Notes under the pieces: generated by a model
Databases searched by the model: none
Told to the model about the DNA's origin: nothing
Seen by the model: the letters and a program-made list of their open reading frames with translations, nothing else
Translations under genes and position numbers: made by a program
In this document: in pieces, positions 8,448-32,556 of the stretch
How positions within the stretch are numbered: position 1 is the first letter of the stretch
Layout of the letters: each line of letters begins with the position of its first letter
Source of the DNA: a virus
Reading direction: 5' to 3' (one strand)
DNA length: 54,439 bases
Virus record (IMG/VR): IMGVR_UViG_3300025102_000037
Coordinates: 1-54,439 of that record

Positions 8448-10141
8448 TGGAAATACCCCCGGAAATGAAAGATGATTTTAGGAATCACTTGTGGGCGTGC
8501 TTTAAATATTTAGGTTTGGGTGAACCAACACCCGTACAGTATGCTATGGCAGACGCTCTTCAGAACGGCCCTAACGACATGCAGCTTCAAGCTGGGCGGG
8601 GCTTTGGTAAATCTGTTATTACCGCCTGTCTAGCCTCGTGGTTCCTTGTACGGGACCACAACTCAACCATCATGGTTGTGTCTGCTACCGGCAACAAGGC
8701 GGTAGAATTTATTAGCATGACACGCAGGATTTTAGATCTTGTTCCTTATTGTGAACATCTTAGACCCGGAGATCATACAACCGATAATGCCTTTGGCTTT
8801 AATGTAGAGTCTCGTACTCGTATCGGGCAGGATAAGTCCTGCTATGCCAAAGGTATTACTGCCCAGATTACAGGGTCGCACGCAGAGTATCTTATCTTTG
8901 ATGATGTAGAGATTGAAGGTAACTGTGAGACGGCGGTCACTAGGCAGAAACTATTAAATAAATGTCTTGAAGCAGAACAAATTCGGAACGTGGGTGGGCG
9001 TGTTATCTTTCTAGGCACACCTCAAATTAAAGATAGTATCTACAACCAATTAAAAACTGGCTACCCAGTGGTTAAATTCCCTGCAATTATGCCAGACAAG
9101 AATGTAGAATCTGAATGTGAGGATGTTTCGCCATGGATCTTTGAGCAAGGCTTTGAAGCTGGAGATCCTACGCAGCCAGAAAGATTCAGTATGGAGACTC
9201 TAATGGAGCGTCAAGCAAAGGTAGGACCCACGCTCTTCAGTCTCCACTACAAACTAGATACTAGTCTGGCTGATAAAGATAAGTACCCACTTAAGTTACA
9301 AGATCTTATTGTATTAGATGTAAACCCTGATCTAGCTCCCGAGAAGATTGTATGGGCTACGTCTGACCCGAATAGGAAAATCCCATCCTTTGGTATGTCT
9401 GGTGATTGTATTTATAATCCTATGTGGGTATCAAATCAGTTTAATGAGTATCAAGATAGAGCAATGTTTGTTGACCCCTCTGGTAGAGGTAGGGATGAAA
9501 CGGGTATTTGCATTGCTAGTTTTAGTAATGGTTACATCTTTGTTCACGAATTGTTGGGTTTAGAGGGAGGCTATGAAAGATCAGTTCTCCAAAAGATAAG
9601 TAAGCTAGCTTACGAATATGATGTTAATCATGTTAGAATTGAATCTAATTATGGTGATGCTATGTTTAATTCTCTACTCCGTCCTGTCATTACAGAGATC
9701 TGTGGACAGGTAGCAATTCAAGAGTATAGGGTAACTGGTCAGAAGGAACGCAGAATGCTTGCTGCTCTGGAGCCTACAATGGCTCAGCACAGGCTTGTGT
9801 TCGATAAGAAGCCCGCGAGGGATGAAACGAACCAGAGGCAGCTCACACGGCTCACAGACCGCCGTGGAAGCCTCACACATGATGACCGCGTAGATGTCCT
9901 GTCTGCGGCGTGCTCCTACTGGGAAGAACGACTCCATGTTAATGTGGATTCTGTTGTTCAGAAGAGAAGAGAGCAGGCACATCTAGATACTATCGAAGAA
10001 TGGAAGTCTGATAGAAGAGTAGAGGGAATGTTTAGCTCTAGATTGTCTGGAGCTTTGCGTCATAATGATGAAATTTATCAACGAAACCAGCCTAAACGAG
10101 TAGGGAAATCTGGTAGAATGCAATGGGGAAGGAGAGTCTAA
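8447..10141 (+). CDS. Terminase large subunit (T7 gp19-like DNA maturase B)
   Basis: 564 residues from the ATG at 8447; the upstream TTG at 8444 is unnecessary. The packaging ATPase shows Walker A at residues 49-56 (AGRGFGKS), a coupling/adenine region, and Walker B at 149-155 (LIFDDVE). The nuclease domain shows the first acidic residue in MFVDPSGRGRDETG (D343) and a late acidic cluster HDDRVDVLSAA near residue 480. This matches the T7-type terminase, which pumps DNA into the prohead and cuts the concatemer. Stop and next start overlap (TAATG). Here the terminase pair lies between the tail genes and the internal virion proteins, not at the right end of the late cluster as in T7. Confidence 0.93.
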   Translation: MEIPPEMKDDFRNHLWACFKYLGLGEPTPVQYAMADALQNGPNDMQLQAGRGFGKSVITACLASWFLVRDHNSTIMVVSATGNKAVEFISMTRRILDLVPYCEHLRPGDHTTDNAFGFNVESRTRIGQDKSCYAKGITAQITGSHAEYLIFDDVEIEGNCETAVTRQKLLNKCLEAEQIRNVGGRVIFLGTPQIKDSIYNQLKTGYPVVKFPAIMPDKNVESECEDVSPWIFEQGFEAGDPTQPERFSMETLMERQAKVGPTLFSLHYKLDTSLADKDKYPLKLQDLIVLDVNPDLAPEKIVWATSDPNRKIPSFGMSGDCIYNPMWVSNQFNEYQDRAMFVDPSGRGRDETGICIASFSNGYIFVHELLGLEGGYERSVLQKISKLAYEYDVNHVRIESNYGDAMFNSLLRPVITEICGQVAIQEYRVTGQKERRMLAALEPTMAQHRLVFDKKPARDETNQRQLTRLTDRRGSLTHDDRVDVLSAACSYWEERLHVNVDSVVQKRREQAHLDTIEEWKSDRRVEGMFSSRLSGALRHNDEIYQRNQPKRVGKSGRMQWGRRV

Positions 10142-10788
10142 TGGTAGCAACACTGGTAGGAATGCAAGTAGCTGGTCAAATTATGGGCAGCATTATGGGC
10201 GGATATGCTCAAGCGGAACAACATGCTAGACAAGATATGCAGTTTAGACAACAGGAGTTTCAGCGTAATCTTGAGGTAGATAGAGTTAATGATATTGCAA
10301 ACCAAAAGAATGCACAAAGACTTATTACTAATAGACAATTGGCTATGTCTGCAGGAAAGCAATATGAAGCTACTTTGCAAGACAACTTACGAGGATTCCA
10401 GGCTAATCAACGAGCTTTATACAATGCATTTGCAGCTAGTAAGTCTTCTACAAAAATGGCATTGGCTGGCAAAAACATGTCAAGTAGCTCAGGAACCGGA
10501 GCAGCTTTATTAAGAATGAGTAAACAGAACGCTAAGATGAGCCATCAAAATTTAATTATGAGTAAAAATATTGCTGATAGAAACGCAGATACTCAGCGTC
10601 AAAATGTATTAAATAGCAGAAACTTAAACATGGAACCCGCGACTCATTTTGTTCCCGGCATTTCTCCAGCTGGCGATCCCGGTGCTGCTATTGCAGCAGG
10701 TTGGATTGGTGCTATTGGAGCAGGTGCTGGGGCTGCAATTGGAGCTGGCATGGGTGGTAGTAAACCTGCACCAGCAGGAGGTGGATAA
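10141..10788 (+). CDS. Internal virion protein B (T7 gp14-like)
   Basis: 215 residues from the ATG at 10141, which overlaps the terminase stop and sits 8 nt after an AAGGAG site; an in-frame ATG at 10123 inside the terminase gene is less likely. The N terminus (VATLVGMQVAGQIMGSIMGG) is a glycine-rich hydrophobic helix. Then comes a long Q/A/R-rich helical region (MQFRQQEFQRNLEVDRV) and a Gly/Ala C-terminal tail. Size and composition match T7 gp14 (196 residues), which is ejected first and forms a channel in the outer membrane. The following genes occupy the gp15 and gp16 positions. Confidence 0.75.
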   Translation: MVATLVGMQVAGQIMGSIMGGYAQAEQHARQDMQFRQQEFQRNLEVDRVNDIANQKNAQRLITNRQLAMSAGKQYEATLQDNLRGFQANQRALYNAFAASKSSTKMALAGKNMSSSSGTGAALLRMSKQNAKMSHQNLIMSKNIADRNADTQRQNVLNSRNLNMEPATHFVPGISPAGDPGAAIAAGWIGAIGAGAGAAIGAGMGGSKPAPAGGG

Positions 10789-16034: not shown

Positions 16035-19000
16035 ATGGGAGAAGCGGAACGTAGATTATTCGAAATCGAAGATCTTAAGAATGTTACTAGAGATCTTCGG
16101 AGAAGACATACAACTTTAGACGGCGGCCAGAATAATGGGTTAACGACTGAAGACTATAATCGAAACCGCGCAATGGATGCCCAAGATCGTACGCTTGAAA
16201 CCTTAGAAAGAAACTATGCATACAGTGAGCATACTGCAAACTCTCAAGCGGCTAACGCTAGAGAAGCTGCAACCTATGGGCAAAAACGATTTGGCAAGAT
16301 GAAAGACAATGCTGTAATAGCCAAGTTCCTCGGTCATAGAGATCCTAAAGGTGCTCAGGCTTATAATGATTTTATGTATAAGATTGCTACTCCCGATGCA
16401 ACAGGTAATTTAAAAATTGCAGATCAAAGAACAACTGGTTGGGCCGCTGCTTCTTCCGCCAGTTGGTTCTTATCTAACGCAGAGTTAGAAAGAGGTATTA
16501 CATCTCGAAATGCTAACAATATTAAAATTAATATGAATCTTATGCGAGGCGGTTTACGAGATTATTTTGAAGGCGAAGGTCTTAAAGAATATCGTGGTGA
16601 TGAAGAAATTGAACGAGGAATGGATAGTATCACTGTTGCGGGAGATGGTTGGAATGTAAACCCATTAAACTTTGATGAATCTTTTGATGCTTTTGGATTG
16701 ATGGATTCTCCTGATCTTCAAGCGCTTCGTTATACTGATTCTAATTTTAGTGCCGATACTTATTTAAACGAGATTCAAGAAATTAATCCTGAGTTTGTTT
16801 CTTTAATGAATAAATCCGGCGTTGATATGGATGTTTTAAAACAAACCGGCAACGCTAATGAGTTTTGGTGGAATGTTAACAGAGGCATTGCTATGTTGGG
16901 TGCTGCCAATACTATTGCTCATTGGAAAGAAACAGTTCCAGAATATCAAGAGTGGGCAATGATGGCTAAGGATTTTGTTAGAGATTCTTTAATGAATGAC
17001 CCTGACTTTGCGGGTGAGCTTGTTATTGGCGGGATGTTAGCCTTGTCTACAGGACCTGTTGGAATAGCAGCTCTAACTGGTTTAAAAGTAGCAAAACATG
17101 TTGGCAAGGGTAAGAAGTTTGCTAGAACTTTAGTTAATGCAGCTCGAACCATGAGAAAGGCTGCACAAAAAGCTAACAATGCTTTGCCTCAAAACTGGGG
17201 TCTTAGTATTGGATATGGACTTAGAAAAACTGCTGTAGGTAGATTCTTAAATGTAACTTCAGATGATTTTATTGTAGACGGTATGAAGTTTGGTACCACA
17301 AGAAAATACGGTTCTAAACTTACTGGGTACATGATGGCGGAACTTCCTGCTGGTTTTGTCGAAGAAGGTATTGCTGGAGCATACAATGCTTACAGTATGA
17401 ATCAGACTCAAGTAGGTAGAGATCAAGACCTGTTTAAAGCCTTTATTGATGAGGGTGTTGCAGGGTCTTTGGTTAGAGCTTTTGGTATTAATCCTGCTTT
17501 AAGAAGTATTAACTTTGGTATGAGATACACTGGAGCTAAAGCAGAAAAGTATTTAGTTGATAACTTTGGTAGCATGTTTGATGAAGATGCCGATGGTATG
17601 GGATGGACTCGCAATATTGGTGCATTCTTTCACAGAGCGAAACAAATCACTTCTTTAGATGATACTACTTTCTTATCTAATGAATTAGATGCATTAGATG
17701 TAATGATTGCCTTAGATGAATTAAATATGACTGAGGCAGAAGCGATTGCTGAAATTGAAGGTAGTAATGTACAAGAGCTGGTTAATAAACATCCAGCTTT
17801 GCAAGCAATTGCTACAATGTTAGAGTTTGATAAAGAAGGTAATATTATTGGTAGGGAAACTCTTACTGATGGTAAGAAGGGTGAATTAAAACTTGTTAAG
17901 TTAATTCGTAAAACAAGAGAAGATATTGCCCGGCAAAAATTAGGTATTGATCGTACCGAAGACTTTACCGAACAAGAAGGCGATACCGAAGATGTAAGAA
18001 AGTTTAAAGCTGAGCAAAGAGAAAAGATTGCTAAAGAAGTTAAAGAAGGCACTGTTAGTAAGGATGAATTTAATCTTGCTCTTATGGGGGCCGTCTGGGG
18101 TAAACTGGATAGCGAAGCAAAATCAGCTTCAGAAGCTAGAGCACATAGAGATGCTGCATATTTCCAAATGAGCTTACGATCTTTGGCGTTAGAAAAACAT
18201 CAAGAGATGAAGAAGACTAATCCTAAAGCAACATTCCAAGAAGCCTTTGATGCTGTCTTAGATGATCCCGACTTGTTAATTAAGATGGATCAAGGCGGTG
18301 TTTCTAGAGAAATTGACCAAATTATTGCAGAACAACATCCCGATTTATACGAGACAGCTACAGATGAAAATAGTGGTGAGGAATATTTTGTTCCTAAAAA
18401 AGATACAGAAGATAGAAAGTATAGTGAAGAACTAGCTAAGCATCGCAGAAATGTAGACTTTGATACGCAACTTGCTGCTATTAAAGCACACAGAAAGCGG
18501 CTTGGTATTGTTAAAGATATGCGATTTGCTATTGATGATGCACTGCAAGAAAAAGCAAATACCGCATTCCGCGAGTTAAATAATAAAATTAATCACGAAG
18601 CTAGTTTTAATACTGTTGTTGAATTTATTGAAGCTAACGATGATGGTAGTACGCTTATCATTGACGGAGGCAAAGGTTTAATTGAAGATCTTAATGATGC
18701 TGATATTATTGAAGTAACAGTTAATATGCGTGGTGTTAAAATGCCAATGAGACTTTCTGTGCGTAGACCCAAAGCATTTGAGAGAAAAGGTAGGGGCCAA
18801 ACTCTTAAAACTGTTAAGGTTGAAGTTCAAGCACTAACTGTAGAAAAATATGATAGTGTTAGAGAAATGCTTAACAAGCTTCAAATTGTTACAGGTATTG
18901 ATGAGGTTAAAGCAGCAGAAAAGCTTAGACCTTTAATTAAACAAGCGATTGCAGACAGACTAGGTATTAAAGATGCGTCTGATACTGATCTTGTTGCTAT

Positions 19001-22000
19001 GTTTACAGGCTTGCGTCGAGCTCAAGGAAGAGAATTAACTGAAGCTGAAGCTGATTTAATTAAAGGATTAAAATCGGATTCTAAAAAGAATAGACAAAGA
19101 AAGATTAATTCTAGAACAGCTATGATTGATCTTATCCAAAACGATCTTACAGAAGTAGCTGTAGGCCAGTTAAGTGTACAATATTTTGATGGGATTGGTT
19201 TGGATTCTTCAAATGTTTTAGCACGACTATCTGATCCAGAAGCTAGCAGATTTATTCTTACTATTGAAAATGCAAGAAAAGAAGCACAAGATAATTTGGC
19301 ATTATCCGAAGTCTTAAGCGGTTTAGGTGGTATGTTTAATATTGAAATTGTTCCTGATGCTGATCCTAGAGCGATTGCCGAAAGAGATCTTATTAGACAG
19401 AAAGATGCTGCTAAAGTAAAAGCTATGAACCTTAAGGGCAAAGCATTAACCGCTGAGCTTGATAGATTGGGTCTTAAAAAATCTGGTAACGCAAAAGCTA
19501 AAAAAGAACGTGTGGCTCAAGCGTATGCTAGGCTTTTAGAGGAAGGCAAGCCTATTGATGGTAAACCGGAAGCAGAAGCCAAGCCCGAAGAGCCAGCTAA
19601 AGAGCCAACGGCTGAAGAAACAGAAATTACAGAGATTGAAAGTAGATTAGCTGAAATTGCAAAAATGGAAGCTGAATCAAAAGAAAATAATCAAGAGCTT
19701 GCGGTTCATATTATTGAAGAAAAAGAAAGATTAACTGAAAGGTTAAATGAACTTAAAGAAAAGCAACCTGAAACAGAAGACGAAGGTAGGGGTATTACAT
19801 TTGATCCTGCCGATGCACGAAGACCCGGAGTAGATCAAGAAACTAATGATTTAATGAACAAGTTTCTTCAAGAAGCAACAGATCCTACTTTACCCAGAGG
19901 ATCTATTGAAAGATCAGAAGACAGGCTTGTTGCTCTTAAAAAAATGAAAGACGGTAAAGTTCTGGACGAAAAAGAATCAGATGCTATTGACGCTCTTATT
20001 CGCGAAGAAACGGAAAGATTAGAACGAAGAAAAGCCGAGCAAGTTGAAGAAGAGTCTCCTGTTGAAGTTGAAGTGTTACAAGCTGTAGAGGAGTCTATGG
20101 ACGAGAGTGCTAAAACAACCGACGCAAAAACTGGCGATGCTATTGATCAGGCTAATAAGGATGCTGATAGTGGTGAAATTATTGCTGAAGATGGTACTGT
20201 ATCAGAAGATGGAAAAAAAGCTGCAGCTATTCGTACAGAACGACAGGCAAATACCGATAGGGCAGTTGACTCTCAACGAAAGGCAGAAGATGCAGATACG
20301 AGCAGTCAGCGAGTTAAAGAAAATTACAATACGCGAAGACCAATAATTTTACAAGAGCTTCGTAGTATTGAAGCTGAGAGAGAAAGACTTCGTGAGGAAG
20401 CACGAGAACAAGAAGGCGAAAAATTTGATGACGAAGATTTTGCTACGCGAAAAGATGTTGTTAAGTTAGATCAAAGAGAAGCTAAACTTAAAAAAGAATT
20501 AGCAACTATGGAAGAAGCATTGGGTAATGCATCGCAACGTATAGCAGAAAAAAATAAAGATGCATTGCAAAAGGCACAAGTTAAGGAAGAAGAACTTAAG
20601 GAAAGAGAAAATGCTCTTGCTCCCGATATGGATCAGTCTATTGCTGAAAATGTCTGGGCTCAAATTGAAGTAAGACGTATGAAGAAAGACAAAGCCAACG
20701 ATGCCAGAAGAATTCTTCGTAAACTTAAAGAAAAAAATCCGCAGCCCACTATTGAAGAAATGCATGCAGCTTTGCTAGAGGTAGGTTTTAGTGAGTTTGA
20801 TGCTAAAACAATTGCAAACTTTATGACAGAAGAAGTTAATGGTGCAATTGAAGCTGATAAAAAGTTATCTAAAAAAGAAAAGGAAAGAAAAAAGTTAACT
20901 AATATTCGAGAACGTGGCGATACTACAATTAATCAAGATCACTTTAATACAGCATATGAAGCATTTAAGAAACGATTAAAGACTGAAGCTGAAGGTGAGT
21001 TAACTCAACGAGAGCTGCGTCAAGCAAAAATTATGGCTCTGTATGGTAAAGAGGAATGGGAAAGAGTTCGTGCCGCTAGCAATCCAGATATTGAATTAGA
21101 TATTGCATTAGAAGGTAATGATGCTATTGTTCCCATTAGAGGTAAACCTTTTACTGGTTTAATTAATACTGCCTTTGATCCCGTTGACAGAAACGGTATT
21201 GATATGTCTGACGATGATAAAACAGCCGTTTTAAACGCTAATAATCAACTTGCTTTAATTAAAGCTTTGGAAAGAGCTATTAATAACCTTGCAACTATTG
21301 AAGGCAGAACCACCATTACTAGTGCAGAGTTAGCCAGCTTTGCTTTAGCTGTTGGAAAAAGAAAAGGGTTTGATGTTAATGTAGGTCAACTCTTTGCTAA
21401 AATGAATTGGGCTGTTATCTTTAGAGAATCTATGGTGACAGGTGTTGATGAAGGCGTTGAATACTTTGATCCTGAAAGTTTATTAGATGAGTTAATGATG
21501 CACAAGGCTCGTCTTGAATATAAGACAAGAGGTAGGAAGACTAAGCTTCGAGCATTGGAAGCACAAAAAGAATCTCTTAGTCGCGATGAGCACTTGCAAG
21601 ATGAAGAGTTATTGTTAGAAGAAACTTTAGAAATTGCTGAAGGTGATTCAGATACTCTTAAAGAATTGGGTCGTATTTTATTCAGAAGCGAAACTAGTTC
21701 CTTAAGAGGTCAGTTCTTAGTAGGTATTGATCCTACTAGTAGAAAGTTGGTTAGAACATCTAATAAAGCAGAGTACGAAGCTACAGTCTTAGGTGCTATT
21801 GAAGAACGAATGAAGTTGTATTTTGCACAGCCAAGAAAGTTAGCCAAGATTGTTAACTTCTTAGTAGAAGAAGGATTATTGGATCCCTCATATAGAGATA
21901 ATACATCTCCAGATCAGACGGCACAAAAAATGTATGTGCAAGCTGTAGCTCAATACTTAAGAACATATCCGGGGAATAAGTCTGGTGACTTGTCTTCTTG

Positions 22001-25000
22001 GGGCAATGGCGATATTTCATATTCTTTTGCTGATCAAATTGGTATGGGTATTGTTGATACATTGGCTGGTGAACAAATTGGCACGACTCACGAAATGGTT
22101 GAAGATTACGAAGATGACTATGATTCTAGCGGTGCTAAGATTCATGGTAGTGATCGTATGGATCCAGTTAAGCATCGTGGTGCTCCAATTAAGATTAATA
22201 TGGCTGAACCCATGTTGCCGGGACGTTTAGAAAAACTTAAAGAAGATCATAGATTGATGATGGTTAATCAATTCATTATGGAATTAGATTTAACCGAAGA
22301 GGAAATGGGAATGATCTTTGACTTTACTGATCCTGAAAAAACACCAGATAAGACTGCTGTGGGTGTAGTTGCAGATAGATCTAAGTTTATTGCTGGTGAA
22401 AGACCAATGCCTAGAATTATCTTTGCTGATCCAACCGCTAATCTTCAATCTAGAAAAAAGTTATTAGAAGACATGGCTTTTGCTTTATCAGGACTGCATG
22501 ATGTTCTTTTGTCTAGTATTCACGACTCTGTAAACAATCAAGTGTATGGGGAAAGTATTCCTAGTGGTTTCTTAGATGAAGGAATTGTTTCTGAACTGTA
22601 TGAACGTCATGGTATTGGCTTACCCGGAACTACGGTTGCTATTCCGGGCAGAGAAGATGCCTTAGGACGGGGTGCTGGTGAAGCTGGTGGCTTTGGAGTT
22701 GCTGGTGCTCGCTTTGGTACACTGGCCTATCACGCGGCTCGAAGCTACGGCAAAATGTATCCAGTGTTTAGAGATACTGCTATTGAAGGATTGGCTACAT
22801 GGTCTGCCTTTAGTAAAGCAATCAATGAAGCCACTGATATTGGCATTAAGTCTGCGGAAGAAGCTTTAAGCAAAGATACATACTTTGACGGTAACTTTAA
22901 TGGTATTCACCACAAGATGGCTTTGTCATTTACATTTACAGAAATGGAACTTGATTGGTCATTTCCTACAGATAAATTAAGAGCTGCCATTGCAGACAAG
23001 GGAGATGCTTTAGATAGGTTCTTGTTTGATCATCATGAGATGATGGGTAACAAATTTGTTGGTCGATATAAGAATAGAAACAAAGAAGATTATTATATTA
23101 AGAGTGCTCACGATATCTTGTTAGCTTTATTTAAACGGGCGTATCAAGGAACGGGACCTGAGCAAAAGCTAGCACAAGATACTGTGGAAAAACTGCAAGA
23201 GATTGGCTTCCTTCCAGAAACCTTATCTGTTGCAACATTCGAAGACGGTATTACAATTGATAATCTTTTGGATGGTGAAGAGTATGCTAAGGTTCGAGCA
23301 TTGTTTAAAAAACCAGTGATGACCTATCTTTATGGGGCTAAAAAAGATACTATCAATAAAGAATTTAAAAACTTTTTGGTAGATGAGATGGGATTAAATG
23401 CTACAGAAGCTTCAAAAGTTTCAGATCCTCTTACAAGAATTGCACTTGGCTTTGGCTTAAAGAGTAGACAGATTGCTCTTACTGATCTAACTAATAAAGA
23501 TCGAACAGAAGATCCGTTATTAAAAAATATTTTAGGCGATGACTCTCAGTTAGATTCTATCTTAAAAGCTATGCGTACTCGTATGGATGCTCATGGGTTT
23601 ACCGATGACAATCAAAGAAAACTTAGAGAACATATTAGAAACATGATGGTTGATCCAAGCAACCCCATGGCATTGGAAGATATTACCTTTAACAATCTTG
23701 CATTCCAAATTCAAATGCGTGATTCTATGATTGAAGGATTGATTCAAGGACAACTTGGCTACCAGCCCGGAACACCTGAGTATAACCGGATGAAGTCTAA
23801 GATTAATAAAACAATGCAAGCAGCTTCAGATAAACAAATGGAGTTCTTGGGAAATAGAATTAGAAAGGGTATTGAACGATTATCTGCTCCTGCCTTGACT
23901 AGTGATACTCCTCTTTTAAAATTAACCGATAAAGAATTAGAAACTGTACCTAAGGTTGTTGGTATTCTTTTGACTAAACCTAAATCAGAATGGTCACAGT
24001 TTGAAGAAGTGAAACCATACTTAGATAAAAATGGTAACATTAGTGATGAACCTGTAGGGGAAACTTTAAATCTTAAAAAGAATATGGGTTCCTTTATCCG
24101 TCACATTAGAGTAGAAATTAATGAAGGCATTACAAGAGAAGAAGCTCAAGAAGTTCAAAAGGAAGCAGATGCTGCTATCGAGCCACAAGAGGGTCTATTC
24201 CAAGCAGTAAAAGCTATGGGCGAAGTCGGTAGAAAACTAGACATGGTTGCTCTTGATGAGCTAATGGAGTTTGCTGGTATTTCCGTTGGCGATCCTAATA
24301 TGCGAAATACTCTTGAAAAATACTACAAAAATAATCTTACCTATCGTGGTATTGGTAGAGATGGCTATGCTGGACGCTGGTACGGCACTGAGCACGAGGG
24401 AACTCACCAAGGACCCAAGGGGGCTCAGGATCAAGGGGTAGCCGCTGACGAGCCCCTGCTGGCTATGGGAGCTATGCTTAAGGCTCGTAATGAGGTTAAT
24501 TTTGATAAGGCAGAACAAATGTTTGCTAGGTATTTATTACACCGCACGGCAAATGTTCATACAAATGTAGAACATGTTATTGTTAAAATTGCCAAACAAA
24601 AATTAGAAGGTGAAAAAGATCCTGATCAAATTAGAAGACTAAAAGCAATTATTGCAATTATGACTCCCGATAATGAGTTAACACCAGAACAAAGAGTTGA
24701 ACGCGATATTCAATTCTTTGAAGATTGGCATTCACAATATGAAGTTGCTAAGGCTGTTGAAGATGCAGTTAAAACCCAAGGTGGGTTTGAAAGTTTAACT
24801 GATTCAGAAAGACAGCAGGTTAAATTAAGCTCTATGTTAACACAAGCCACTGCTGCTCATGGTATGGATCCTGAAACTGTAGACACACCAGCTACAACTG
24901 TAGAAGAACTTGAAGATCGTAAGATTAATTTGGGGCAGAATCATGGTATGTTTGCCACTAGGGCAAAAGCTTTTGATACCTCGTTTAGAAACTTAGGTGT

Positions 25001-28000
25001 GCCGGAATTTAAAAAGATTAGAGTTAAACGAATTTTACAAGGCACCGGAATGGTTACAGGTAAGATTGAAAGCCTTCGAGACTTTATGGATAATGCCGAA
25101 GAGTCAGATGCTTTAATGATTGAGCAAGAACATGTAAACAATCTTGTGGAAAATCCATATAGCACTGAACCAAATGATTTGCTTTATCCTGAATTAAATA
25201 TTGCTGAAAGCAGTGATATTGCTATGCAGGCTAGCAGACAAACTATTCAAAAGTATGCTACATCATTAAGAACTAAACTTATTAGATTTGCATATGATCA
25301 TGGATTAATTGAAATGATTCAACGTGGCGAATGGCAGCGTGTTGACTATCTTATGAAGGTTCGTATTATCAGAGATAGAAACCACGAGCAACGTAGAACT
25401 GAGTTAAACAGACTCCCTGCTGAATTGTCACGAGAAGAATTAACTAAGAGACGCGAAGAAATTATCCATAGATACAGAAGAAAGACTGCAAGGGAAATTA
25501 AATTAATTAATCAAAGAGCAGAAGAAAATGCAGATGCAGTTAGCACGATTGTAGAAATGGCTCCCGGTGGAAATGTGTCTACTATTTCTACAGGAACCTT
25601 GGTAAACAAAGATGGTACGTCTAAGAATCTTGGAGAGATTTTAAATACTTTAAGAAACGAATTGAATAACCTAGGTGCATACGGAGCATTGTCTCCTGTT
25701 GAAGGCGTAGCCATGGATGACTTATCTAGAGCTGTGTTTGTTACAGAAGAAACAGCTGACAGACCTAGAATTGTTCACGCTTCAGATGCTGCTCACATTC
25801 TTACTCTTATTATTGATATGCAAGATACTGCAGATTTCTTACGAACTGAGGGAAGAGAGTTAGTTGAAACTATTATTAAGAGAAACGATCTTGATATTAC
25901 TGTTGAAGAATTTACTAAAAGGCTCCCTGTTTATGGTAAATATTTGTCGTTAGATGAAGCTATTTTTGTCATTGATGAGTTAGATAAGAAAGAAACTTTA
26001 GCTGACAGAAATATTCTTACCTTAGCTAAGAGTGCATACTTGGGTCAACTAGATCAAGAAGAAACAGAAACAGCTTTGCGAAGCACTAGTTCTAGAAGAG
26101 GTTTGATTGCCGGTACTGGCGAAATTGCTACAGAAAATAAAATTCAAGGTACGACGGGTAGAATTAAACTTACACTGTCTCAAGCAAGGCAGGCTCTTTT
26201 AAATATTAGAAACAGTACTACCTTAGATTTAATTACTGATACACATTACACTGGTATTAGCCACCTTAATAAGCATAAGTCAAGAGGTACGCGTCTTGAT
26301 CAAATTGATCATGTTACAGGCCAACGTGTTTCTGAAATGCGTCTTAGAGATGAAGTACACGCTGAGGGTATGCAGTATCTTGTAGATGAATACAATGTAC
26401 GAGAAGGCAAACCTACAGAATTAAATACCAGTCTTAATGTTGTTGTAGGCGGCAGAGATAGATCTATGTTGTCGCAAACTGAAGGCGGTAACAGAAGGTT
26501 GCCAGCAATGGGTGGCGTGTTTGCCGAAGGTCCGTTTAGAAAACGACGCGGTACTCAACAAGCTATCTATTTAGACTATAGTCAATTTGAGGGGGAAACC
26601 GATCAACTTCATAGCGGTGTATTAAAAGCGCAGTTAACTGCATGGAAACAACTTGAAGTATTGCCCGATGAATTAGAATCATTGGTGGATATCAAGCCGC
26701 CATTTAGAGGGGAAAAACTTAGATTGCTTAAGCAGCAAAGAGTTTTAGGATATCTGGCAACTCACTATTCTATTTCAGATGAAACTAGAATTACTATTCC
26801 TGCGGTAATAAAAGATGGCAAGGTTGAACAAAAGGCAAAATCCTTTGGTTCTGTTGCAGTTAACACTGCGTTAGCTTACATGGAATTGTATGGCAATACT
26901 AAGGAAATGTTTGTAACTGAAGGCGGTGTTACAAGATCCTTAACGTTAGAAGAAGTAATTCAATTGCCAGAAGTTCAACGAATGATTACCAAAGCTGAAA
27001 CATGGGCTACTACTGCATTGATGGTTAGAACTGGAGAGAATGGTAAGTACTATGATGAGGCCAGAGGTTTTGTTATGTGGCTTGCTGAAAATCCTGCAAG
27101 CTTTACCTCGTCAGATGAAAATCAGTTAGATATTCAATTCTTTGAGTATCTTAAGAGCAGAAACAAAAGTATTGATTTGCTTGATAAAGCTGAAATGAAA
27201 GCTGCTCAAGATGCTCTTAGAAAAGCTATTAGTCAAATTGAAGTTGAAGATAGCTTACAAAGCAGAGAAGTTCCGCTAACTCTTACGGTTGATCCTGATA
27301 CTGCTGCAAAGAATCTTGAGAATACTATCTCAGGTGTTGCATTTAAGAGTTCATTAGAGCAGGCTGTTGCTGATGGTTATATCTCCGAAACAACTAAGGA
27401 TATTGTTCTTGCTGTAGTGGCTAAGATTTCTGCTAGCAATGCAGACTTCTTAAATAGAGTTGATATTCAGTTTGGTGCTAATAAGAGTAGAGCTATTAGT
27501 GCTATGGCTGGTGATAGATATCTTATTGAGCTTAGTACAGCTGATGGCAAAAAGAATCCCATGACTGCAGCTAAGATTCTTCTTCACGAATTAGTTCACG
27601 TTGGTACATATAAGTATTTTGATTTAGAGTCTACCTCAGATGAGATGTTACAGATTAAAGAGCTTATGAGATTTAGATCTGTTAATAAGCTTATGTTTGA
27701 TATGACCGCTGCGTTTACTAAGGGCGATAGAACTGCTACATTCCAAAGACATAGACAGTTTATGAAAAAACCAGAAGAGTTTGTTGCTGAGTCTGCTGCT
27801 ATGTTCTGGCTAACAGAAGCAAGAGCAGAGATTGAACAGATTCTTAGTGATGCAGAAGGTAAGATTGAGTTTAGTGAAGTAGAGGATGCGGGTAAACAAA
27901 ACTTTATTAAACGAATTAGAAAAGCAATTGTAAGAAGTATTGACAGCACTAGAAATACTTTAAGATCTATGATTGCTACTATGACAGAGTTTGAAAGTTA

Positions 28001-31000
28001 TTACGGAGAAGAAGGTAAGGCTGAGCTTGCTAAAATGAAAGAGCTTGCTTTACAAGCTGCTGGTATTGTTGTTAAGAATGGCAAACCAGATGCATCCTTA
28101 GTGGCTAAACCAAACAATCATCGTTATGTATTTCATCATGATGGTTCTGAGTCAGGAACAACTACGGAAAAAACAGATGATGAAGTTTTAGATTTATTGG
28201 GCAAGATTAGATCTATTAAGGATCAAATTAATACACAAAGAGGTAAGGATGGAAATGATTTATCTCCAGAAGAATTAAGTGCATTGGGCGATGAATTAAC
28301 TGCAAGAAACAGCGAACTTGATGCTGTTGATGCACTACCAGATGAGTTTGGTACATTTAGAAGCCAAAGAATTATAGCTGAGCAAGAGCTTAGAGATAAC
28401 GGTAGATTTAGATCTGGTGATGGTGTTCTTGTTGTTGACATGAAAGATTTACTGGTAGAAAAACCGGGAGTTGCCTTAAGTATCTTTACTCGTAACCTTA
28501 AAAATAATAATGGTAAAATCCATAGAGGTTTCTTAGATAGAATTGCTTTGAATCGAGAAGGTCTTAATCAACTTACTTTAGGTCCTTCACAAAATGATAT
28601 GACTTATGATTCTATTTATGATTTAGCTGTTCAACTTAGTTTAGTGATTGATCAACAAATTCTTATGACTGAACATATGATTAATCCTGAAGGAACTTCT
28701 GATTTGCTTAGAGCAAAACAAAAAATTGATAATCAACTTGCCTTCTTGCGTGGACAAATTAGAGGCAACAAAGATATTAAACCTGAGCAAGAAAGTAAAA
28801 TTTTGTATTACTTAGCTCATCCTAAAGCAAAACCAGAAACAGGCGAAGAAGCGTTGCATGACGTAGCCAAGTTAATGCGTACACAATTTAATGATGTTAT
28901 TGATTTAGCTAAAGATACTGGACTCTTGTTTAAAGGTTTAGATTATTCTCCAGTTCCAATTAAGATTAATGAACAAGCCTTAATGGAAAACAGAAATGAA
29001 ATTATGAAATCATTAACTGGCGATATTGCCAAAAAGATTCGTGGTAACATGGCAGATGCTATTGACCCTATTACCCTAATGAGTTCTGGGCTGCTTCCTC
29101 CAATGTTCTTAACAAGCAAAAGAACCGATCCTAACTCTTTATCAGAAGATCAAAAGAAAGATTTTATTAATGCTGTTCAGAAACTGGCAAAGACTGAAGC
29201 TGGTCGAAAAGTTATTGAGCATGCAATTGGATTGCTACGTCCAGAACAGAAAGAACAATTTGAAGGATATCCTATTAAAGAATTATTAGGATATAAATAT
29301 CCTGTAGGTGGAGACTCTAATTGGAAGACTCATCATGTTATGAATCTTATGATTGCGTTTGAAACTTTATACGAAAAGGGATTTAAACAACAAGGATTTA
29401 GAAAAGGTGCTGGCAGACATAATGTTTTAATTGAGTTTGTAAATCAAAAACAAAACAGACAACAGTATATTGATGCAGTTAGTAGCCAAATTAATACTAA
29501 TCAATATACTATTATGAGAGCTAATAAGAAATTTAATGTTAGTGCAGTAAGAGCTACGCCCCTTGATCCGGGCAAGTCTACAGACACACCTGTTTATAGC
29601 CCCGCTACTTACAGAGCAGAATTATTTTTAGGCGAAGTTCAAAGCGGTGTTAGATTCTTGGCTGCTGATAAAGTATTTGAGCCTACCTCTTCTGAAATTG
29701 TATCTCAAATGTTGGGTACTGCTGCTGATAGAGCTGATGGTACACACACCTTAGGTGATGCTTTTGTTAAAGATAGTGAAACTTTGATTGAAGGCGTAGG
29801 TACAGGATTAGGTTTTGATGCAGTTGCTACTCTAGCAATTGGACATAGAGCTAGAGGTAATGGCTACGAAATTGAAGGTATACGTTTTGATGACATTCTT
29901 GGTGCATTGTTAGAAACGGGATCAGATGCAATCATTAGAGATCCTGTGCTTACTGAGGGTGTTCGAGATGGACTTAGAAAGAATAGAAGTATTAGCGGTC
30001 TTAGGGATTCACTAAAGGTTGTTCAAAATAAATATGATACTCTAGCGGGTCGAAGAGTTCGTGTTGATAAGACTCAGGGCTCTGGGTTGATAAACCGAAT
30101 TGCCTCTATGGGTAGTGATCTTGTGCTTGCGTCCTATGGTGGTAACTTAGCTTTGGCTACCTCTATTGTGGAAGGTACTGCTACTGCATTCCAAATGGCT
30201 GGTCGAGGTGATATGTTGCGTGGTCCTGCTATGTTGTTAAAGTCTATGTTAATGGGCGGTGCTCAAGGTACGTTGGGTGGATTGGTAAAAGCTGGTAGAT
30301 TGTTTGGATTTGAGTCTAATAGATTCCAAATTAAAAGCACTGCTGCAGAGTTATCCTATGCGTTTGAGCATACAAAAGTTAGAGGAATGGAAACAAGTAG
30401 CGATGATCCAAGTTTAGTAACAGAAGGCACTATGTCTAAAATTGGAGCATTTGTTGGACAAGTTCCTAGATCATTAGCTGATGCAGCTACTGGTGCGTCA
30501 TCTGGTGTTACTAACGGAATTAAATTTGCTGTTGAGGGATTAGCTATTAATACTTTAAATAAATTAATTCGTAGTGGCGGCTTAATGAAGATGGCCAAGT
30601 TCTTAGAAACTGATAAAGGTAAAGAACTACTGGCTTTAGGTGAGTCTGAAAACATAGCAACATCTAAATTGTATAGCCAAGTTAAAAGAATTCTAAAGGG
30701 TAGTGGCCTTTCTGATTTTGCATTCTTGGGTAAACATGATGTAAAAGTGTTTATGGCTATGATGGATTCAGGTGTATTACGTCCTGATTTCTTAAAAGAT
30801 TTAAATGATTTAATTAACGTAGCTGGCTTAGAACAGTTTATCTTTGATGGTTCTGCGGCTAAGTATAGTCCAAGAAGTTCTGCACTAACTCATATTGCCC
30901 AACTTCAAAGAGCCGCGTTAATGACTCAGGATAAAGCTAAGCGTGACAGATTTATGAATACGCTTAGTCAAATTAAAGAATATGTAAACAGAGAGATTGA

Positions 31001-32018
31001 AGCTAGATTTGTGGGTGGTAATCCATTGATGATGGATACTGCTAACTCTGCTGGTGCTATTCTATTTAAAATCTTTAGATCATATCCGACTCTGTTCTTT
31101 GGTCAAAGGTTAAGACAAGATTCTAGATACTATGGTCCGTTACAAAATGGTATTAGAATTGCTAATCTTATTTCGTTAGATATGCTTTACATGGTTGCAT
31201 CTGCTGTTGCCTCCGGCGGCTTAGATGAAAAACGTATAGATCTTTTAATGCAAGAAATTCAACAAAAGGATGCTTTAATTCGTCTTATTGCTCGCACGCC
31301 AACCTTTGGTATGTTTGGGGGAGTTCTTGCTTCTGCTGTTGCTGAAGCAGGAATCTTTGTTACGGGCGGAAAAGGTTACACACAAAACCTTTTGAACCAA
31401 GCATTTATTCCAATTCCTCTTGCTAAGATTCAATCTAGTGGCGTAAACGGTTTGCTTAATATGTTGAAGTATGCTGGTGAACATGGTGCTCAAGCAGATG
31501 CTCGTTTTAATTTAGCCTTGATGAATCTGTTAACCTCGTTACCAGTTCTGCAAGAGGCATATACCAAGGCAGCAATCCATCATTATTTCTCAACCCCTAT
31601 GATGAGAAATCTTCAAAACGAAAAACTGCAGAGAAAAATTAATGCAGGTAATCGTAGAAGAAGTGGTGGGTCTGGCGGTAGAGGAGCTGGCAGTGGAGGT
31701 CGACTCTATTATCAAGACCCTGAGGATTACAGAGCCAACCCCGGAGCTATTGAGTTTGCGGCAGATAGAAACATCTGGCCTGATGAATTAATATCTTATG
31801 ATATGTTGGCAGTTTTAGCCGGAGAGCCATTGCCGAGCCTGATGGGCCCTGCACCGCTTCCCAAGGCCGAAGACGACCCCACCCCCTCTGAAGCTGCTCC
31901 TCCGCCTCCACCGGCCCCTGAGGCCCCGCAAAAGCAAGTGGACACTTCTCCATCATTGTCAGCTAAGACTGGTAGCCCCAGTCAACGGTTCGCAGAATCA
32001 TTAGGTCAGTTCTCGTAA
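16035..32018 (+). CDS. Giant 5327-residue virion protein with candidate N4-type RNA polymerase domain and zincin
   Basis: Starts after AAGGAG and occupies the T7 gp16 (ejected protein) position. Seen: a Gly/Ala hydrophobic segment at about 330-352; a SAP-like motif at about 1130-1168; long charged coiled coil at about 1170-1660. The RNA polymerase signature is motif A DGNFNGIHH (D2285; T7 has DGSCSGIQH), an EDYY..SAHDILLALF helix like the DLY..VA helix that follows motif A in T7-type enzymes, and motif B with R2421, K2425, PVMTYLYG, Y2433, G2434 (T7: R627, K631, Y639, G640). HASDAAH at 3248-3254 parallels HSxDxxH before motif C. Motif C itself is uncertain (LITDTHYTG, D3402). A zinc-protease motif HELVH lies at 3851-3855 with EEFVAES about 60 residues later. 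The C terminus has hydrophobic helices and a proline-rich tail. N4 vRNAP (about 3500 residues) is the known precedent for a polymerase inside a giant ejected protein. The fold is inferred from motifs. Confidence 0.8.
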   Translation: MGEAERRLFEIEDLKNVTRDLRRRHTTLDGGQNNGLTTEDYNRNRAMDAQDRTLETLERNYAYSEHTANSQAANAREAATYGQKRFGKMKDNAVIAKFLGHRDPKGAQAYNDFMYKIATPDATGNLKIADQRTTGWAAASSASWFLSNAELERGITSRNANNIKINMNLMRGGLRDYFEGEGLKEYRGDEEIERGMDSITVAGDGWNVNPLNFDESFDAFGLMDSPDLQALRYTDSNFSADTYLNEIQEINPEFVSLMNKSGVDMDVLKQTGNANEFWWNVNRGIAMLGAANTIAHWKETVPEYQEWAMMAKDFVRDSLMNDPDFAGELVIGGMLALSTGPVGIAALTGLKVAKHVGKGKKFARTLVNAARTMRKAAQKANNALPQNWGLSIGYGLRKTAVGRFLNVTSDDFIVDGMKFGTTRKYGSKLTGYMMAELPAGFVEEGIAGAYNAYSMNQTQVGRDQDLFKAFIDEGVAGSLVRAFGINPALRSINFGMRYTGAKAEKYLVDNFGSMFDEDADGMGWTRNIGAFFHRAKQITSLDDTTFLSNELDALDVMIALDELNMTEAEAIAEIEGSNVQELVNKHPALQAIATMLEFDKEGNIIGRETLTDGKKGELKLVKLIRKTREDIARQKLGIDRTEDFTEQEGDTEDVRKFKAEQREKIAKEVKEGTVSKDEFNLALMGAVWGKLDSEAKSASEARAHRDAAYFQMSLRSLALEKHQEMKKTNPKATFQEAFDAVLDDPDLLIKMDQGGVSREIDQIIAEQHPDLYETATDENSGEEYFVPKKDTEDRKYSEELAKHRRNVDFDTQLAAIKAHRKRLGIVKDMRFAIDDALQEKANTAFRELNNKINHEASFNTVVEFIEANDDGSTLIIDGGKGLIEDLNDADIIEVTVNMRGVKMPMRLSVRRPKAFERKGRGQTLKTVKVEVQALTVEKYDSVREMLNKLQIVTGIDEVKAAEKLRPLIKQAIADRLGIKDASDTDLVAMFTGLRRAQGRELTEAEADLIKGLKSDSKKNRQRKINSRTAMIDLIQNDLTEVAVGQLSVQYFDGIGLDSSNVLARLSDPEASRFILTIENARKEAQDNLALSEVLSGLGGMFNIEIVPDADPRAIAERDLIRQKDAAKVKAMNLKGKALTAELDRLGLKKSGNAKAKKERVAQAYARLLEEGKPIDGKPEAEAKPEEPAKEPTAEETEITEIESRLAEIAKMEAESKENNQELAVHIIEEKERLTERLNELKEKQPETEDEGRGITFDPADARRPGVDQETNDLMNKFLQEATDPTLPRGSIERSEDRLVALKKMKDGKVLDEKESDAIDALIREETERLERRKAEQVEEESPVEVEVLQAVEESMDESAKTTDAKTGDAIDQANKDADSGEIIAEDGTVSEDGKKAAAIRTERQANTDRAVDSQRKAEDADTSSQRVKENYNTRRPIILQELRSIEAERERLREEAREQEGEKFDDEDFATRKDVVKLDQREAKLKKELATMEEALGNASQRIAEKNKDALQKAQVKEEELKERENALAPDMDQSIAENVWAQIEVRRMKKDKANDARRILRKLKEKNPQPTIEEMHAALLEVGFSEFDAKTIANFMTEEVNGAIEADKKLSKKEKERKKLTNIRERGDTTINQDHFNTAYEAFKKRLKTEAEGELTQRELRQAKIMALYGKEEWERVRAASNPDIELDIALEGNDAIVPIRGKPFTGLINTAFDPVDRNGIDMSDDDKTAVLNANNQLALIKALERAINNLATIEGRTTITSAELASFALAVGKRKGFDVNVGQLFAKMNWAVIFRESMVTGVDEGVEYFDPESLLDELMMHKARLEYKTRGRKTKLRALEAQKESLSRDEHLQDEELLLEETLEIAEGDSDTLKELGRILFRSETSSLRGQFLVGIDPTSRKLVRTSNKAEYEATVLGAIEERMKLYFAQPRKLAKIVNFLVEEGLLDPSYRDNTSPDQTAQKMYVQAVAQYLRTYPGNKSGDLSSWGNGDISYSFADQIGMGIVDTLAGEQIGTTHEMVEDYEDDYDSSGAKIHGSDRMDPVKHRGAPIKINMAEPMLPGRLEKLKEDHRLMMVNQFIMELDLTEEEMGMIFDFTDPEKTPDKTAVGVVADRSKFIAGERPMPRIIFADPTANLQSRKKLLEDMAFALSGLHDVLLSSIHDSVNNQVYGESIPSGFLDEGIVSELYERHGIGLPGTTVAIPGREDALGRGAGEAGGFGVAGARFGTLAYHAARSYGKMYPVFRDTAIEGLATWSAFSKAINEATDIGIKSAEEALSKDTYFDGNFNGIHHKMALSFTFTEMELDWSFPTDKLRAAIADKGDALDRFLFDHHEMMGNKFVGRYKNRNKEDYYIKSAHDILLALFKRAYQGTGPEQKLAQDTVEKLQEIGFLPETLSVATFEDGITIDNLLDGEEYAKVRALFKKPVMTYLYGAKKDTINKEFKNFLVDEMGLNATEASKVSDPLTRIALGFGLKSRQIALTDLTNKDRTEDPLLKNILGDDSQLDSILKAMRTRMDAHGFTDDNQRKLREHIRNMMVDPSNPMALEDITFNNLAFQIQMRDSMIEGLIQGQLGYQPGTPEYNRMKSKINKTMQAASDKQMEFLGNRIRKGIERLSAPALTSDTPLLKLTDKELETVPKVVGILLTKPKSEWSQFEEVKPYLDKNGNISDEPVGETLNLKKNMGSFIRHIRVEINEGITREEAQEVQKEADAAIEPQEGLFQAVKAMGEVGRKLDMVALDELMEFAGISVGDPNMRNTLEKYYKNNLTYRGIGRDGYAGRWYGTEHEGTHQGPKGAQDQGVAADEPLLAMGAMLKARNEVNFDKAEQMFARYLLHRTANVHTNVEHVIVKIAKQKLEGEKDPDQIRRLKAIIAIMTPDNELTPEQRVERDIQFFEDWHSQYEVAKAVEDAVKTQGGFESLTDSERQQVKLSSMLTQATAAHGMDPETVDTPATTVEELEDRKINLGQNHGMFATRAKAFDTSFRNLGVPEFKKIRVKRILQGTGMVTGKIESLRDFMDNAEESDALMIEQEHVNNLVENPYSTEPNDLLYPELNIAESSDIAMQASRQTIQKYATSLRTKLIRFAYDHGLIEMIQRGEWQRVDYLMKVRIIRDRNHEQRRTELNRLPAELSREELTKRREEIIHRYRRKTAREIKLINQRAEENADAVSTIVEMAPGGNVSTISTGTLVNKDGTSKNLGEILNTLRNELNNLGAYGALSPVEGVAMDDLSRAVFVTEETADRPRIVHASDAAHILTLIIDMQDTADFLRTEGRELVETIIKRNDLDITVEEFTKRLPVYGKYLSLDEAIFVIDELDKKETLADRNILTLAKSAYLGQLDQEETETALRSTSSRRGLIAGTGEIATENKIQGTTGRIKLTLSQARQALLNIRNSTTLDLITDTHYTGISHLNKHKSRGTRLDQIDHVTGQRVSEMRLRDEVHAEGMQYLVDEYNVREGKPTELNTSLNVVVGGRDRSMLSQTEGGNRRLPAMGGVFAEGPFRKRRGTQQAIYLDYSQFEGETDQLHSGVLKAQLTAWKQLEVLPDELESLVDIKPPFRGEKLRLLKQQRVLGYLATHYSISDETRITIPAVIKDGKVEQKAKSFGSVAVNTALAYMELYGNTKEMFVTEGGVTRSLTLEEVIQLPEVQRMITKAETWATTALMVRTGENGKYYDEARGFVMWLAENPASFTSSDENQLDIQFFEYLKSRNKSIDLLDKAEMKAAQDALRKAISQIEVEDSLQSREVPLTLTVDPDTAAKNLENTISGVAFKSSLEQAVADGYISETTKDIVLAVVAKISASNADFLNRVDIQFGANKSRAISAMAGDRYLIELSTADGKKNPMTAAKILLHELVHVGTYKYFDLESTSDEMLQIKELMRFRSVNKLMFDMTAAFTKGDRTATFQRHRQFMKKPEEFVAESAAMFWLTEARAEIEQILSDAEGKIEFSEVEDAGKQNFIKRIRKAIVRSIDSTRNTLRSMIATMTEFESYYGEEGKAELAKMKELALQAAGIVVKNGKPDASLVAKPNNHRYVFHHDGSESGTTTEKTDDEVLDLLGKIRSIKDQINTQRGKDGNDLSPEELSALGDELTARNSELDAVDALPDEFGTFRSQRIIAEQELRDNGRFRSGDGVLVVDMKDLLVEKPGVALSIFTRNLKNNNGKIHRGFLDRIALNREGLNQLTLGPSQNDMTYDSIYDLAVQLSLVIDQQILMTEHMINPEGTSDLLRAKQKIDNQLAFLRGQIRGNKDIKPEQESKILYYLAHPKAKPETGEEALHDVAKLMRTQFNDVIDLAKDTGLLFKGLDYSPVPIKINEQALMENRNEIMKSLTGDIAKKIRGNMADAIDPITLMSSGLLPPMFLTSKRTDPNSLSEDQKKDFINAVQKLAKTEAGRKVIEHAIGLLRPEQKEQFEGYPIKELLGYKYPVGGDSNWKTHHVMNLMIAFETLYEKGFKQQGFRKGAGRHNVLIEFVNQKQNRQQYIDAVSSQINTNQYTIMRANKKFNVSAVRATPLDPGKSTDTPVYSPATYRAELFLGEVQSGVRFLAADKVFEPTSSEIVSQMLGTAADRADGTHTLGDAFVKDSETLIEGVGTGLGFDAVATLAIGHRARGNGYEIEGIRFDDILGALLETGSDAIIRDPVLTEGVRDGLRKNRSISGLRDSLKVVQNKYDTLAGRRVRVDKTQGSGLINRIASMGSDLVLASYGGNLALATSIVEGTATAFQMAGRGDMLRGPAMLLKSMLMGGAQGTLGGLVKAGRLFGFESNRFQIKSTAAELSYAFEHTKVRGMETSSDDPSLVTEGTMSKIGAFVGQVPRSLADAATGASSGVTNGIKFAVEGLAINTLNKLIRSGGLMKMAKFLETDKGKELLALGESENIATSKLYSQVKRILKGSGLSDFAFLGKHDVKVFMAMMDSGVLRPDFLKDLNDLINVAGLEQFIFDGSAAKYSPRSSALTHIAQLQRAALMTQDKAKRDRFMNTLSQIKEYVNREIEARFVGGNPLMMDTANSAGAILFKIFRSYPTLFFGQRLRQDSRYYGPLQNGIRIANLISLDMLYMVASAVASGGLDEKRIDLLMQEIQQKDALIRLIARTPTFGMFGGVLASAVAEAGIFVTGGKGYTQNLLNQAFIPIPLAKIQSSGVNGLLNMLKYAGEHGAQADARFNLALMNLLTSLPVLQEAYTKAAIHHYFSTPMMRNLQNEKLQRKINAGNRRRSGGSGGRGAGSGGRLYYQDPEDYRANPGAIEFAADRNIWPDELISYDMLAVLAGEPLPSLMGPAPLPKAEDDPTPSEAAPPPPPAPEAPQKQVDTSPSLSAKTGSPSQRFAESLGQFS

Positions 32019-32028
32019 GGAGTTCTTT

Positions 32029-32478: not shown

Positions 32479-32556
32479 GGGTCACGAATTTGTAAGGGGC
32501 TTTCTAAGATTTTTGTTTTGAGATGACCCCCATTACCCCCCTTGAAAGGATTTGTG

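What the first reader, a model, noticed from the sequence alone, without database searches (positions are those of the whole stretch)
22650..26260. Candidate virion RNA polymerase inside a 5327-residue ejected protein
Seen: a DGNFNGIHH motif A (D2285), an EDYY...AHDIL helix like that following motif A in T7 enzymes, motif B with R, K, Y, G at exactly the T7 spacing (2421, 2425, 2433, 2434), HASDAAH (3248-3254) like the HSxDxxH element, and weaker DALGR (2208-2212) and LITDTHY (D3402) for DxxGR and motif C. Known: N4 packages a giant vRNAP of this family. Inference: a T7-like chassis with an N4-like packaged polymerase. The B-to-HxxD gap (about 815 residues) is far longer than in T7, so large insertions must be assumed.
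Basis: partly seen in the sequence, partly recalled or inferred. Interest (0 to 1): 0.95.

Follow-up and report, generated by a model that had tools for sequence, protein, structure and literature searches.

The report
N4-type polymerase in T7-like phage
A marine phage built like T7 carries, inside a 5,327-residue protein that is probably injected into the host, a domain related to the injected RNA polymerase of phage N4, a combination I found in no isolated phage; its activity and its second catalytic residue remain to be shown.

Summary
The finding holds in substance. ORF 16035-32018 (5327 aa, no Cys) sits in the T7 gene-16 position behind a gp14-like and a gp15-like gene. Motif A (D2285) and motif B (R2421, K2425, Y2433) are invariant in all seven giant proteins recovered from IMG/VR relatives (16-51% identity). 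The region matches a profile of Schitoviridae virion RNA polymerases as strongly as true T7-like RNA polymerases do (score 66.9 against 67.1; unrelated families and shuffles at most 25). The one confidently modelled part (fingers) hits only mitochondrial single-subunit RNA polymerases above Foldseek probability 0.2. Downstream lies an HELVH...PEEF zincin-like domain where N4 vRNAP has HELVH...NEFMA. Portal, scaffold, capsid, nozzle and terminase are T7-type; the N4 portal and capsid families are absent. The phage also encodes two ordinary T7-like RNA polymerases. The second catalytic Asp is unresolved. The only other strongly T7-like element is an invariant IHDS (2162-2165), which lies before motif A; if that is motif C, the palm is permuted. 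Both AlphaFold models were poor. Packaging and activity are inferred. No isolate in INPHARED holds a relative.

The parts
16035..32018 (+). Giant ORF, 5327 aa, no Cys, in the T7 gene-16 position; contains the RNA polymerase domain
17019..17075 (+). Hydrophobic segment, residues 329-347, in the N-terminal module; one is present at about 310-347 in relatives (N4 reports membrane helices at 224-278)
21957..26534 (+). Approximate polymerase domain, residues 1975-3500 (boundaries inferred from conservation)
22518..22529 (+). IHDS, residues 2162-2165; H and D invariant in seven members; resembles T7 motif C but lies before motif A
22881..22913 (+). Motif A, YFDGNFNGIHH, catalytic Asp D2285
23085..23141 (+). 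EDYYIKSAHDILLALFKRA helix after motif A; D2352 invariant; aligns with N4 DLYQAS
23295..23339 (+). Motif B, RALFKKPVMTYLYGA (R2421, K2425, Y2433)
25773..25796 (+). VHASDAAH, counterpart of the HSxDxxH element
25962..25985 (+). IFVIDELD; D3314 is one unproven candidate for the second catalytic Asp (6 of 7 in one alignment)
26229..26249 (+).
27252..27914 (+). C1-like zincin domain, residues 3740-3960, with HELVH (27585-27599) and PEEFVAE (27771-27791)
27915..32015 (+). C-terminal region (C2 equivalent by position); no detectable sequence similarity to N4 C2
10788..16022 (+). gp15-like internal virion protein by position, 1744 aa, no Cys
10123..10788 (+). gp14-like internal virion protein by position, 221 aa, no Cys
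8444..10141 (+). Terminase large subunit, T7-type RNase H-like domain
161..3742 (+). T7 gp12-type nozzle protein (reading frame open to the contig start)
35831..37615 (+). Second RNA polymerase gene (RNAP2), 594 aa, with DFRGR, DATCSG, K/Y motif B, IHSLDA and IHDSFG
42424..44862 (+). Full-length T7-like RNA polymerase (RNAP1), 812 aa

Best explanation
The giant protein is an internal virion protein of a T7-like podovirus that carries a single-subunit RNA polymerase domain of the N4 virion polymerase type. The likely sequence is: the protein is packaged with the gp14- and gp15-like proteins, threads through the tail into the cell at infection, its N-terminal module helps build the ejection channel, and its central domain (about residues 1975-3500) transcribes early genes before any phage protein is made. 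Early products would then include the 594-aa RNAP2 and, later, the 812-aa T7-like RNAP1. Shown here: the family, the motifs, the neighbourhood, the N4-like domain order and the T7-type structural genes. Inferred: packaging, ejection, catalytic activity, promoter type and the order of the three polymerases.
For: Invariant motif A and motif B residues in seven divergent giants. Profile match to Schitoviridae vRNAPs, score 66.9, E 3.6e-6, equal to the same profile against T7-like RNAPs (67.1), with control families at 16-25 and the best of 40 shuffles at 21.0 for the A-B sub-region, which scores 45.0. PHROG RNA polymerase family phrog_414 matches 4 of 7 members, best E 1.3e-6. Foldseek of the modelled fingers: POLRMT and yeast mtRNAP at probability 0.51-0.90, everything else listed at 0.13 or less. 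HExxH followed by EEF in the same order as N4. No Cys in 5327+1744+221 aa, as in N4 gp50 and in T7 gp15 and gp16, while other window proteins of 250 aa or more have 16 per 1000. T7-type nozzle and terminase in the window and T7-type portal, scaffold and capsid in relative G002.
Against: No conserved DxxGR and no secure motif C. AlphaFold models are poor overall (pLDDT 49.3 and 46.7). Foldseek E-values are weak (2.7-5.9). The profile E-values are for a single pairwise comparison. No Pfam RNA_pol match to the window protein itself. No proteomic evidence of packaging. Freedom from Cys marks ejected proteins in general, not polymerases: giants of a sister clade without the domain are also free of Cys.
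Confidence: 0.72

Rival explanations
1. The domain descends from a virion RNA polymerase but is catalytically dead and kept for folding, DNA binding or ejection.
For: The DxxGR motif is lost and no conserved motif C follows the HxxD element. Two other complete RNA polymerases are encoded in the window. A sister clade does without the domain.
Against: Motif A Asp and motif B R, K, Y stay invariant at 16-25% identity across the most distant members, which is unusual for a dead enzyme.
Confidence: 0.17
2. An ordinary T7 gp16-type ejection protein with chance polymerase-like motifs.
For: Gene position and freedom from Cys fit any ejected protein. No match in Pfam or by sequence search of the PDB.
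Against: Joint motif spacing 0 of 5000 shuffles; profile match as strong as that of true RNAPs; Foldseek singles out single-subunit RNAPs; phrog_414 hits in 4 of 7 members.
Confidence: 0.06
3. The phage is a member of Schitoviridae and the protein a plain N4 gp50 orthologue.
For: Shared polymerase type, HExxH domain and freedom from Cys.
Against: In relative G002 portal, scaffold and capsid fall in the T7 families and not in the N4 portal and capsid families. N- and C-terminal regions show no detectable similarity to N4 NTD or C2. tblastn finds no match to any record of INPHARED, Schitoviridae included.
Confidence: 0.03

Closest known systems
N4 virion RNA polymerase gp50 and Schitoviridae orthologues
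   Same: Giant protein free of Cys; central single-subunit RNAP domain with DGxxNG-type motif A and R...K.P....YG motif B; downstream HExxH...EF domain; long C-terminal region
   Different: 5327 aa against 3264-3644; motif B to HExxH is 1426 residues against 561 in N4; no TxxGR; motif C not identified; NTD and C2 not recognisably related; located in a T7-type genome
T7 gp16 internal virion protein (ejectosome)
   Same: Last and largest of three consecutive internal-protein genes; free of Cys
   Different: 1318 aa; annotated with an N-terminal endolysin domain and no polymerase
T7-like RNA polymerases, including RNAP1 and RNAP2 of the same window
   Same: Motif A and B spacing and residues; HSxDxxH-like element
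   Different: Sequence much further away than from N4 vRNAP (profile score 24.9-31.0); DxxGR and downstream motif C missing
P23-45 gp96 tape-measure-fused virion RNAP
   Same: Virion RNAP inside a structural protein of about 5,000 residues, with a separate non-virion RNAP (PMC10770324)
   Different: Two-barrel RNAP related to cellular enzymes, in a long-tailed phage; unrelated fold
StenR_269 2270-aa putative vRNAP
   Same: Large protein free of Cys in a podophage, proposed as vRNAP (PMC10747016)
   Different: There no motif or homology was found; here motifs and profile matches exist

Membership tests
Single-subunit (T7/N4) RNA polymerase | Motif A Asp in a D-G/A-x-x-N/S-G context | tested here: met
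   Invariant Asp in seven members
Single-subunit (T7/N4) RNA polymerase | Motif B R-x3-K-x7-Y | tested here: met
   Invariant R, K, Y
Single-subunit (T7/N4) RNA polymerase | Motif C Asp (second catalytic Asp) after motif B | tested here: inconclusive
   D3402 in 3 of 7, D3314 in 6 of 7, invariant IHDS lies before motif A
Single-subunit (T7/N4) RNA polymerase | D/TxxGR motif about 115-140 residues before motif A | tested here: not met
   DALGR not conserved; no conserved xxGR found
Single-subunit (T7/N4) RNA polymerase | Right-hand fold (palm, fingers, thumb) | tested here: inconclusive
   Only the fingers modelled with confidence; they match POLRMT at probability up to 0.90
Schitoviridae virion RNA polymerase (gp50) | Sequence-profile similarity of the polymerase domain | tested here: met
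   Score 66.9, E 3.6e-6 against controls 16-25
Schitoviridae virion RNA polymerase (gp50) | HExxH-bearing C1 domain directly after the polymerase | tested here: met
   HELVH 3851 and PEEF 3913; score 29.4 against shuffles of at most 18.8
Schitoviridae virion RNA polymerase (gp50) | Absence of Cys | tested here: met
   0 of 5327; 10 of 10 Schitoviridae vRNAPs also 0
Schitoviridae virion RNA polymerase (gp50) | Related N-terminal domain and C2 region | tested here: not met
   No match above noise
Schitoviridae virion RNA polymerase (gp50) | Presence in the virion and injection; transcription from hairpin promoters | not testable with these tools
   Needs proteomics and transcription assays
Schitoviridae (virus family) | N4-type portal and major capsid protein | tested here: not met
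   Relative G002 (TerL 91% identical to the window's) has T7-type phrog_449 and phrog_267, not N4 phrog_1216 and phrog_1357
T7-like podovirus | T7-type portal, scaffold, capsid, nozzle, terminase and internal-protein gene order | tested here: met

The most novel reading that the evidence does not exclude
A single-subunit RNA polymerase with a rearranged palm: motif C (IHDS, D2164) lies before motif A, giving the order C-A-B-HxxD, comparable with the permuted palm of some viral RNA-dependent RNA polymerases but never reported, to my knowledge, in the T7/N4 family. The case: H2163 and D2164 are invariant in all seven members; the T7 motif-C block finds this site (24.0) and the HASDAAH site (23.4) as its two best places in the whole giant family, with 18 or less elsewhere; and no conserved motif C follows HASDAAH.
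Probability: 0.25. Interest if true: 0.85.

Novelty: new variant of a known kind. Interest (0 to 1): 0.72.

Why it matters
Injected single-subunit RNA polymerases are treated as the hallmark of Schitoviridae, while T7-like phages are taught as relying on host polymerase for early genes. A T7-type phage with an N4-type polymerase in its ejection protein, plus two more T7-like polymerases, would show that this start-up strategy moves between phage lineages as a module, would suggest independence from host RNA polymerase in marine phages, and would offer a new enzyme family with a large insertion and a possibly permuted active site.

Tried and rejected
DALGR as DxxGR: not conserved. D3402 as motif C: conserved only in close relatives. 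A D....R element at 2776-2781 (both residues invariant, DGYAGRW) was considered as a displaced DxxGR: spacing differs by one residue and I could not test it. PDB sequence searches with the protein and with profiles gave nothing useful. N- and C-terminal profiles against N4 NTD and CTD gave no significant match except the zincin neighbourhood. Further scans of viral contigs found no additional relatives beyond those reached through the terminase, and genome contigs gave none. A search for repeated hairpin promoters between genes gave no convincing N4-type 3-nt-loop set. Freedom from Cys alone was rejected as evidence for a polymerase because T7 gp15 and gp16 and giants without the domain share it.
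Full report
WHAT IS THERE. The window is one IMG/VR virus record of 54,439 bases with no end repeats. It contains an uninterrupted ORF of 5327 codons at 16035-32018. The ORF follows a T7-type nozzle gene, two uncharacterised genes, a T7-type terminase, a 221-aa gene and a 1744-aa gene, the position of T7 gene 16. The window also encodes a full T7-like RNA polymerase of 812 aa (42424-44862, RNA_pol E 2e-80) and a second one of 594 aa (35831-37615, E 1.6e-29), a T7-type primase-helicase and a DNA polymerase.

RELATIVES. The giant has no tblastn match among 50,697 phage records (relatives' domains). Through the terminase I reached 38 IMG/VR loci. Six of these contigs encode a relative of the giant's central region: G001 and G002 (tblastn 47% and 44%), G005, G011 and G014 (23-26%), and G013 (E 3e-19 to a profile built without it). 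Aligned over the domain, identity to the window is 51, 46, 21, 24, 24 and 17%.

MOTIFS. In the seven-member alignment the invariant columns include motif A D2285, F2288, G2290 and H2292, the D2352 of the following helix, motif B R2421, K2425, M2429 and Y2433, and H2163-D2164. Shuffling the protein 5000 times gave motif A 5 times, motif B 8 times, and the pair at 80-170 residues never. The HASDAAH element is matched by HGADAAH, HAHDVAH and HGADATM in three relatives.

FAMILY. PHROG RNA polymerase family phrog_414 matches the window protein at E 1e-4 and four of seven members, best 1.3e-6. Profile-profile comparison with ten Schitoviridae virion RNA polymerases gives score 66.9, E 3.6e-6, aligning motif A with motif A and motif B with motif B. 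The same N4 profile scores 67.1 against T7-like RNA polymerases, and 16-25 against terminase, DNA polymerase, helicase, nozzle, gp15-like and N-terminal giant profiles. For the motif A-B region alone the score is 45.0, and column shuffles reach at most 21.0. Similarity to T7-like RNA polymerases is limited to motif A and is much weaker (24.9). So the domain is nearer to N4 vRNAP than to the T7 branch.

DOMAIN ORDER. N4 gp50 is organised as NTD, RNAP (1007-2101), C1 with HExxH (2124-2375), C2 (PMC12633501). All ten Schitoviridae vRNAPs have HExxH and no Cys. The giant has HELVH at 3851 and PEEF at 3913; N4 has HELVH at 2228, followed by an NEFMA element. The neighbourhood of HExxH scores 29.4 against N4 C1, with shuffles at 18.8 or less, and the N4 profile that includes C1 scores 40.1 against the giant C-terminal part, at the matching position. 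The N-terminal and distal C-terminal regions are not detectably related to N4. In G001 and G005 the gene is split between the N-terminal module and the polymerase-containing part, with a Shine-Dalgarno sequence before the second start, which fits a modular make-up.

VIRION PROTEIN. The 221-, 1744- and 5327-aa proteins have no Cys, while window proteins of 250 aa or more outside this trio have 16 per 1000. T7 gp15 and gp16 and N4 gp50 are likewise free of Cys. This supports an ejected protein but not a polymerase, since giants of a sister clade (G009, G010, G015), which keep the zincin-like region and show no polymerase domain, are free of Cys too. Packaging is inferred from position and composition only.

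CHASSIS. In G002, whose terminase is 91% identical to the window's, the portal, scaffold and capsid match phrog_449, phrog_1052 and phrog_267, the families of T7 gp8, gp9 and gp10; the N4 portal and capsid fall in phrog_1216 and phrog_1357. The window's nozzle is phrog_457, the T7 gp12 family. The phage is therefore T7-type, not Schitoviridae.

STRUCTURE. Two AlphaFold2 jobs with seven-row alignments were poor: residues 2230-3429, pLDDT 49.3, pTM 0.28; residues 1975-2500, pLDDT 46.7, pTM 0.37. Only the fingers part around 2350-2480 reached 70-86. Foldseek of the second model against the PDB listed four mitochondrial RNA polymerase entries at probability 0.90, 0.72, 0.69 and 0.51 (rmsd 3.1-8.7, 101-132 columns) and nothing else above 0.13 among the listed hits. 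E-values are weak, so I treat this as supporting, not decisive. The best BFVD match is an uncharacterised protein of an uncultured virus, A0A218MKS1, E 9e-6, 38% identity.

THE SECOND CATALYTIC ASP. This is the open point. D3402 fails by conservation. D3314 is kept in six of seven in an uncertain part of the alignment. The T7 motif C block, compared with the whole giant family, finds IHDS at 2162-2165 (24.0) and HASDAAH (23.4) as its two best places, with 17.7 or less in the N- and C-terminal parts of the family and 18.0 or less in control families. With a simple matrix the IHDS site ranks first in four of seven giants and second or third in two, but a giant without the domain reaches the same score elsewhere, so single-sequence significance is absent. 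If IHDS is motif C, the order is C-A-B-HxxD, a permuted palm. The alternative is that IHDS occupies the place of DxxGR (122 residues before motif A; 116 in T7, 138 in N4), although the conserved Arg of that motif is missing. I give the permuted reading 0.25.

MECHANISM, WITH STATUS OF EACH STEP. (1) The protein belongs to the gp14-gp15-gp16 ejection set: inferred from order and composition. (2) Its polymerase domain is of the N4 type: shown by profile and motifs. (3) It enters the cell with the DNA and transcribes early genes: inferred from N4, where this was shown experimentally (PMC4496689). (4) RNAP2 and RNAP1 then take over: inferred from gene order and from N4, where vRNAP transcribes the RNAPII genes.

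PRIOR WORK. I found no paper describing a virion single-subunit RNA polymerase in a T7-like phage. A survey of N4-like viruses lists 287 contigs in which the vRNAP is the only N4 hallmark gene (PMC10654107); relatives of this family may be among them, unrecognised. The library searched holds open-licence papers only. Statements about textbook T7 and N4 biology without a call number rest on my own knowledge.

Noticed in passing
window 35656-35685: A 13-bp hairpin with a GAAA loop (GGATGGCACTGGG-GAAA-CCTAGTGTCATCC) 145 bases before the 594-aa RNA polymerase gene, identical in G001 and G002 while most of the flanks diverge; a second conserved hairpin (GACCTG...CAGGTC) follows. Terminator, RNA element or early promoter region.
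   Followed up: partly
window 32000-38000: GC island of 0.50 between flanks of 0.37-0.42; includes RNAP2. The adjoining 149-aa gene is 98.7% identical in G001 although the giant next to it is only 46% identical, which suggests mosaic exchange.
   Followed up: no
window 35831-37615 and 42424-44862: Two separate, apparently intact T7-like RNA polymerase genes in one phage, also found in G002, G011, G013 and G014.
   Followed up: partly
L087 (G001) and L089 (G005): The giant gene is split into two ORFs at the boundary between N-terminal module and polymerase part, with a Shine-Dalgarno sequence before the second start.
   Followed up: partly
G015, G010 and G009 contigs (L064-L066, L070, L073-L076): Sister phages whose 3235-3579-aa giants free of Cys keep the zincin-like region but show no polymerase domain; no second RNA polymerase was seen in G015, though that contig is not known to be complete.
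   Followed up: partly
window 24360-24380: DGYAGRW: D2776 and R2781 are invariant in all seven giants within a long insertion; role unknown.
   Followed up: no
window 47823-47973: Two tRNA genes, Leu (TAA) and Arg (TCT).
   Followed up: no
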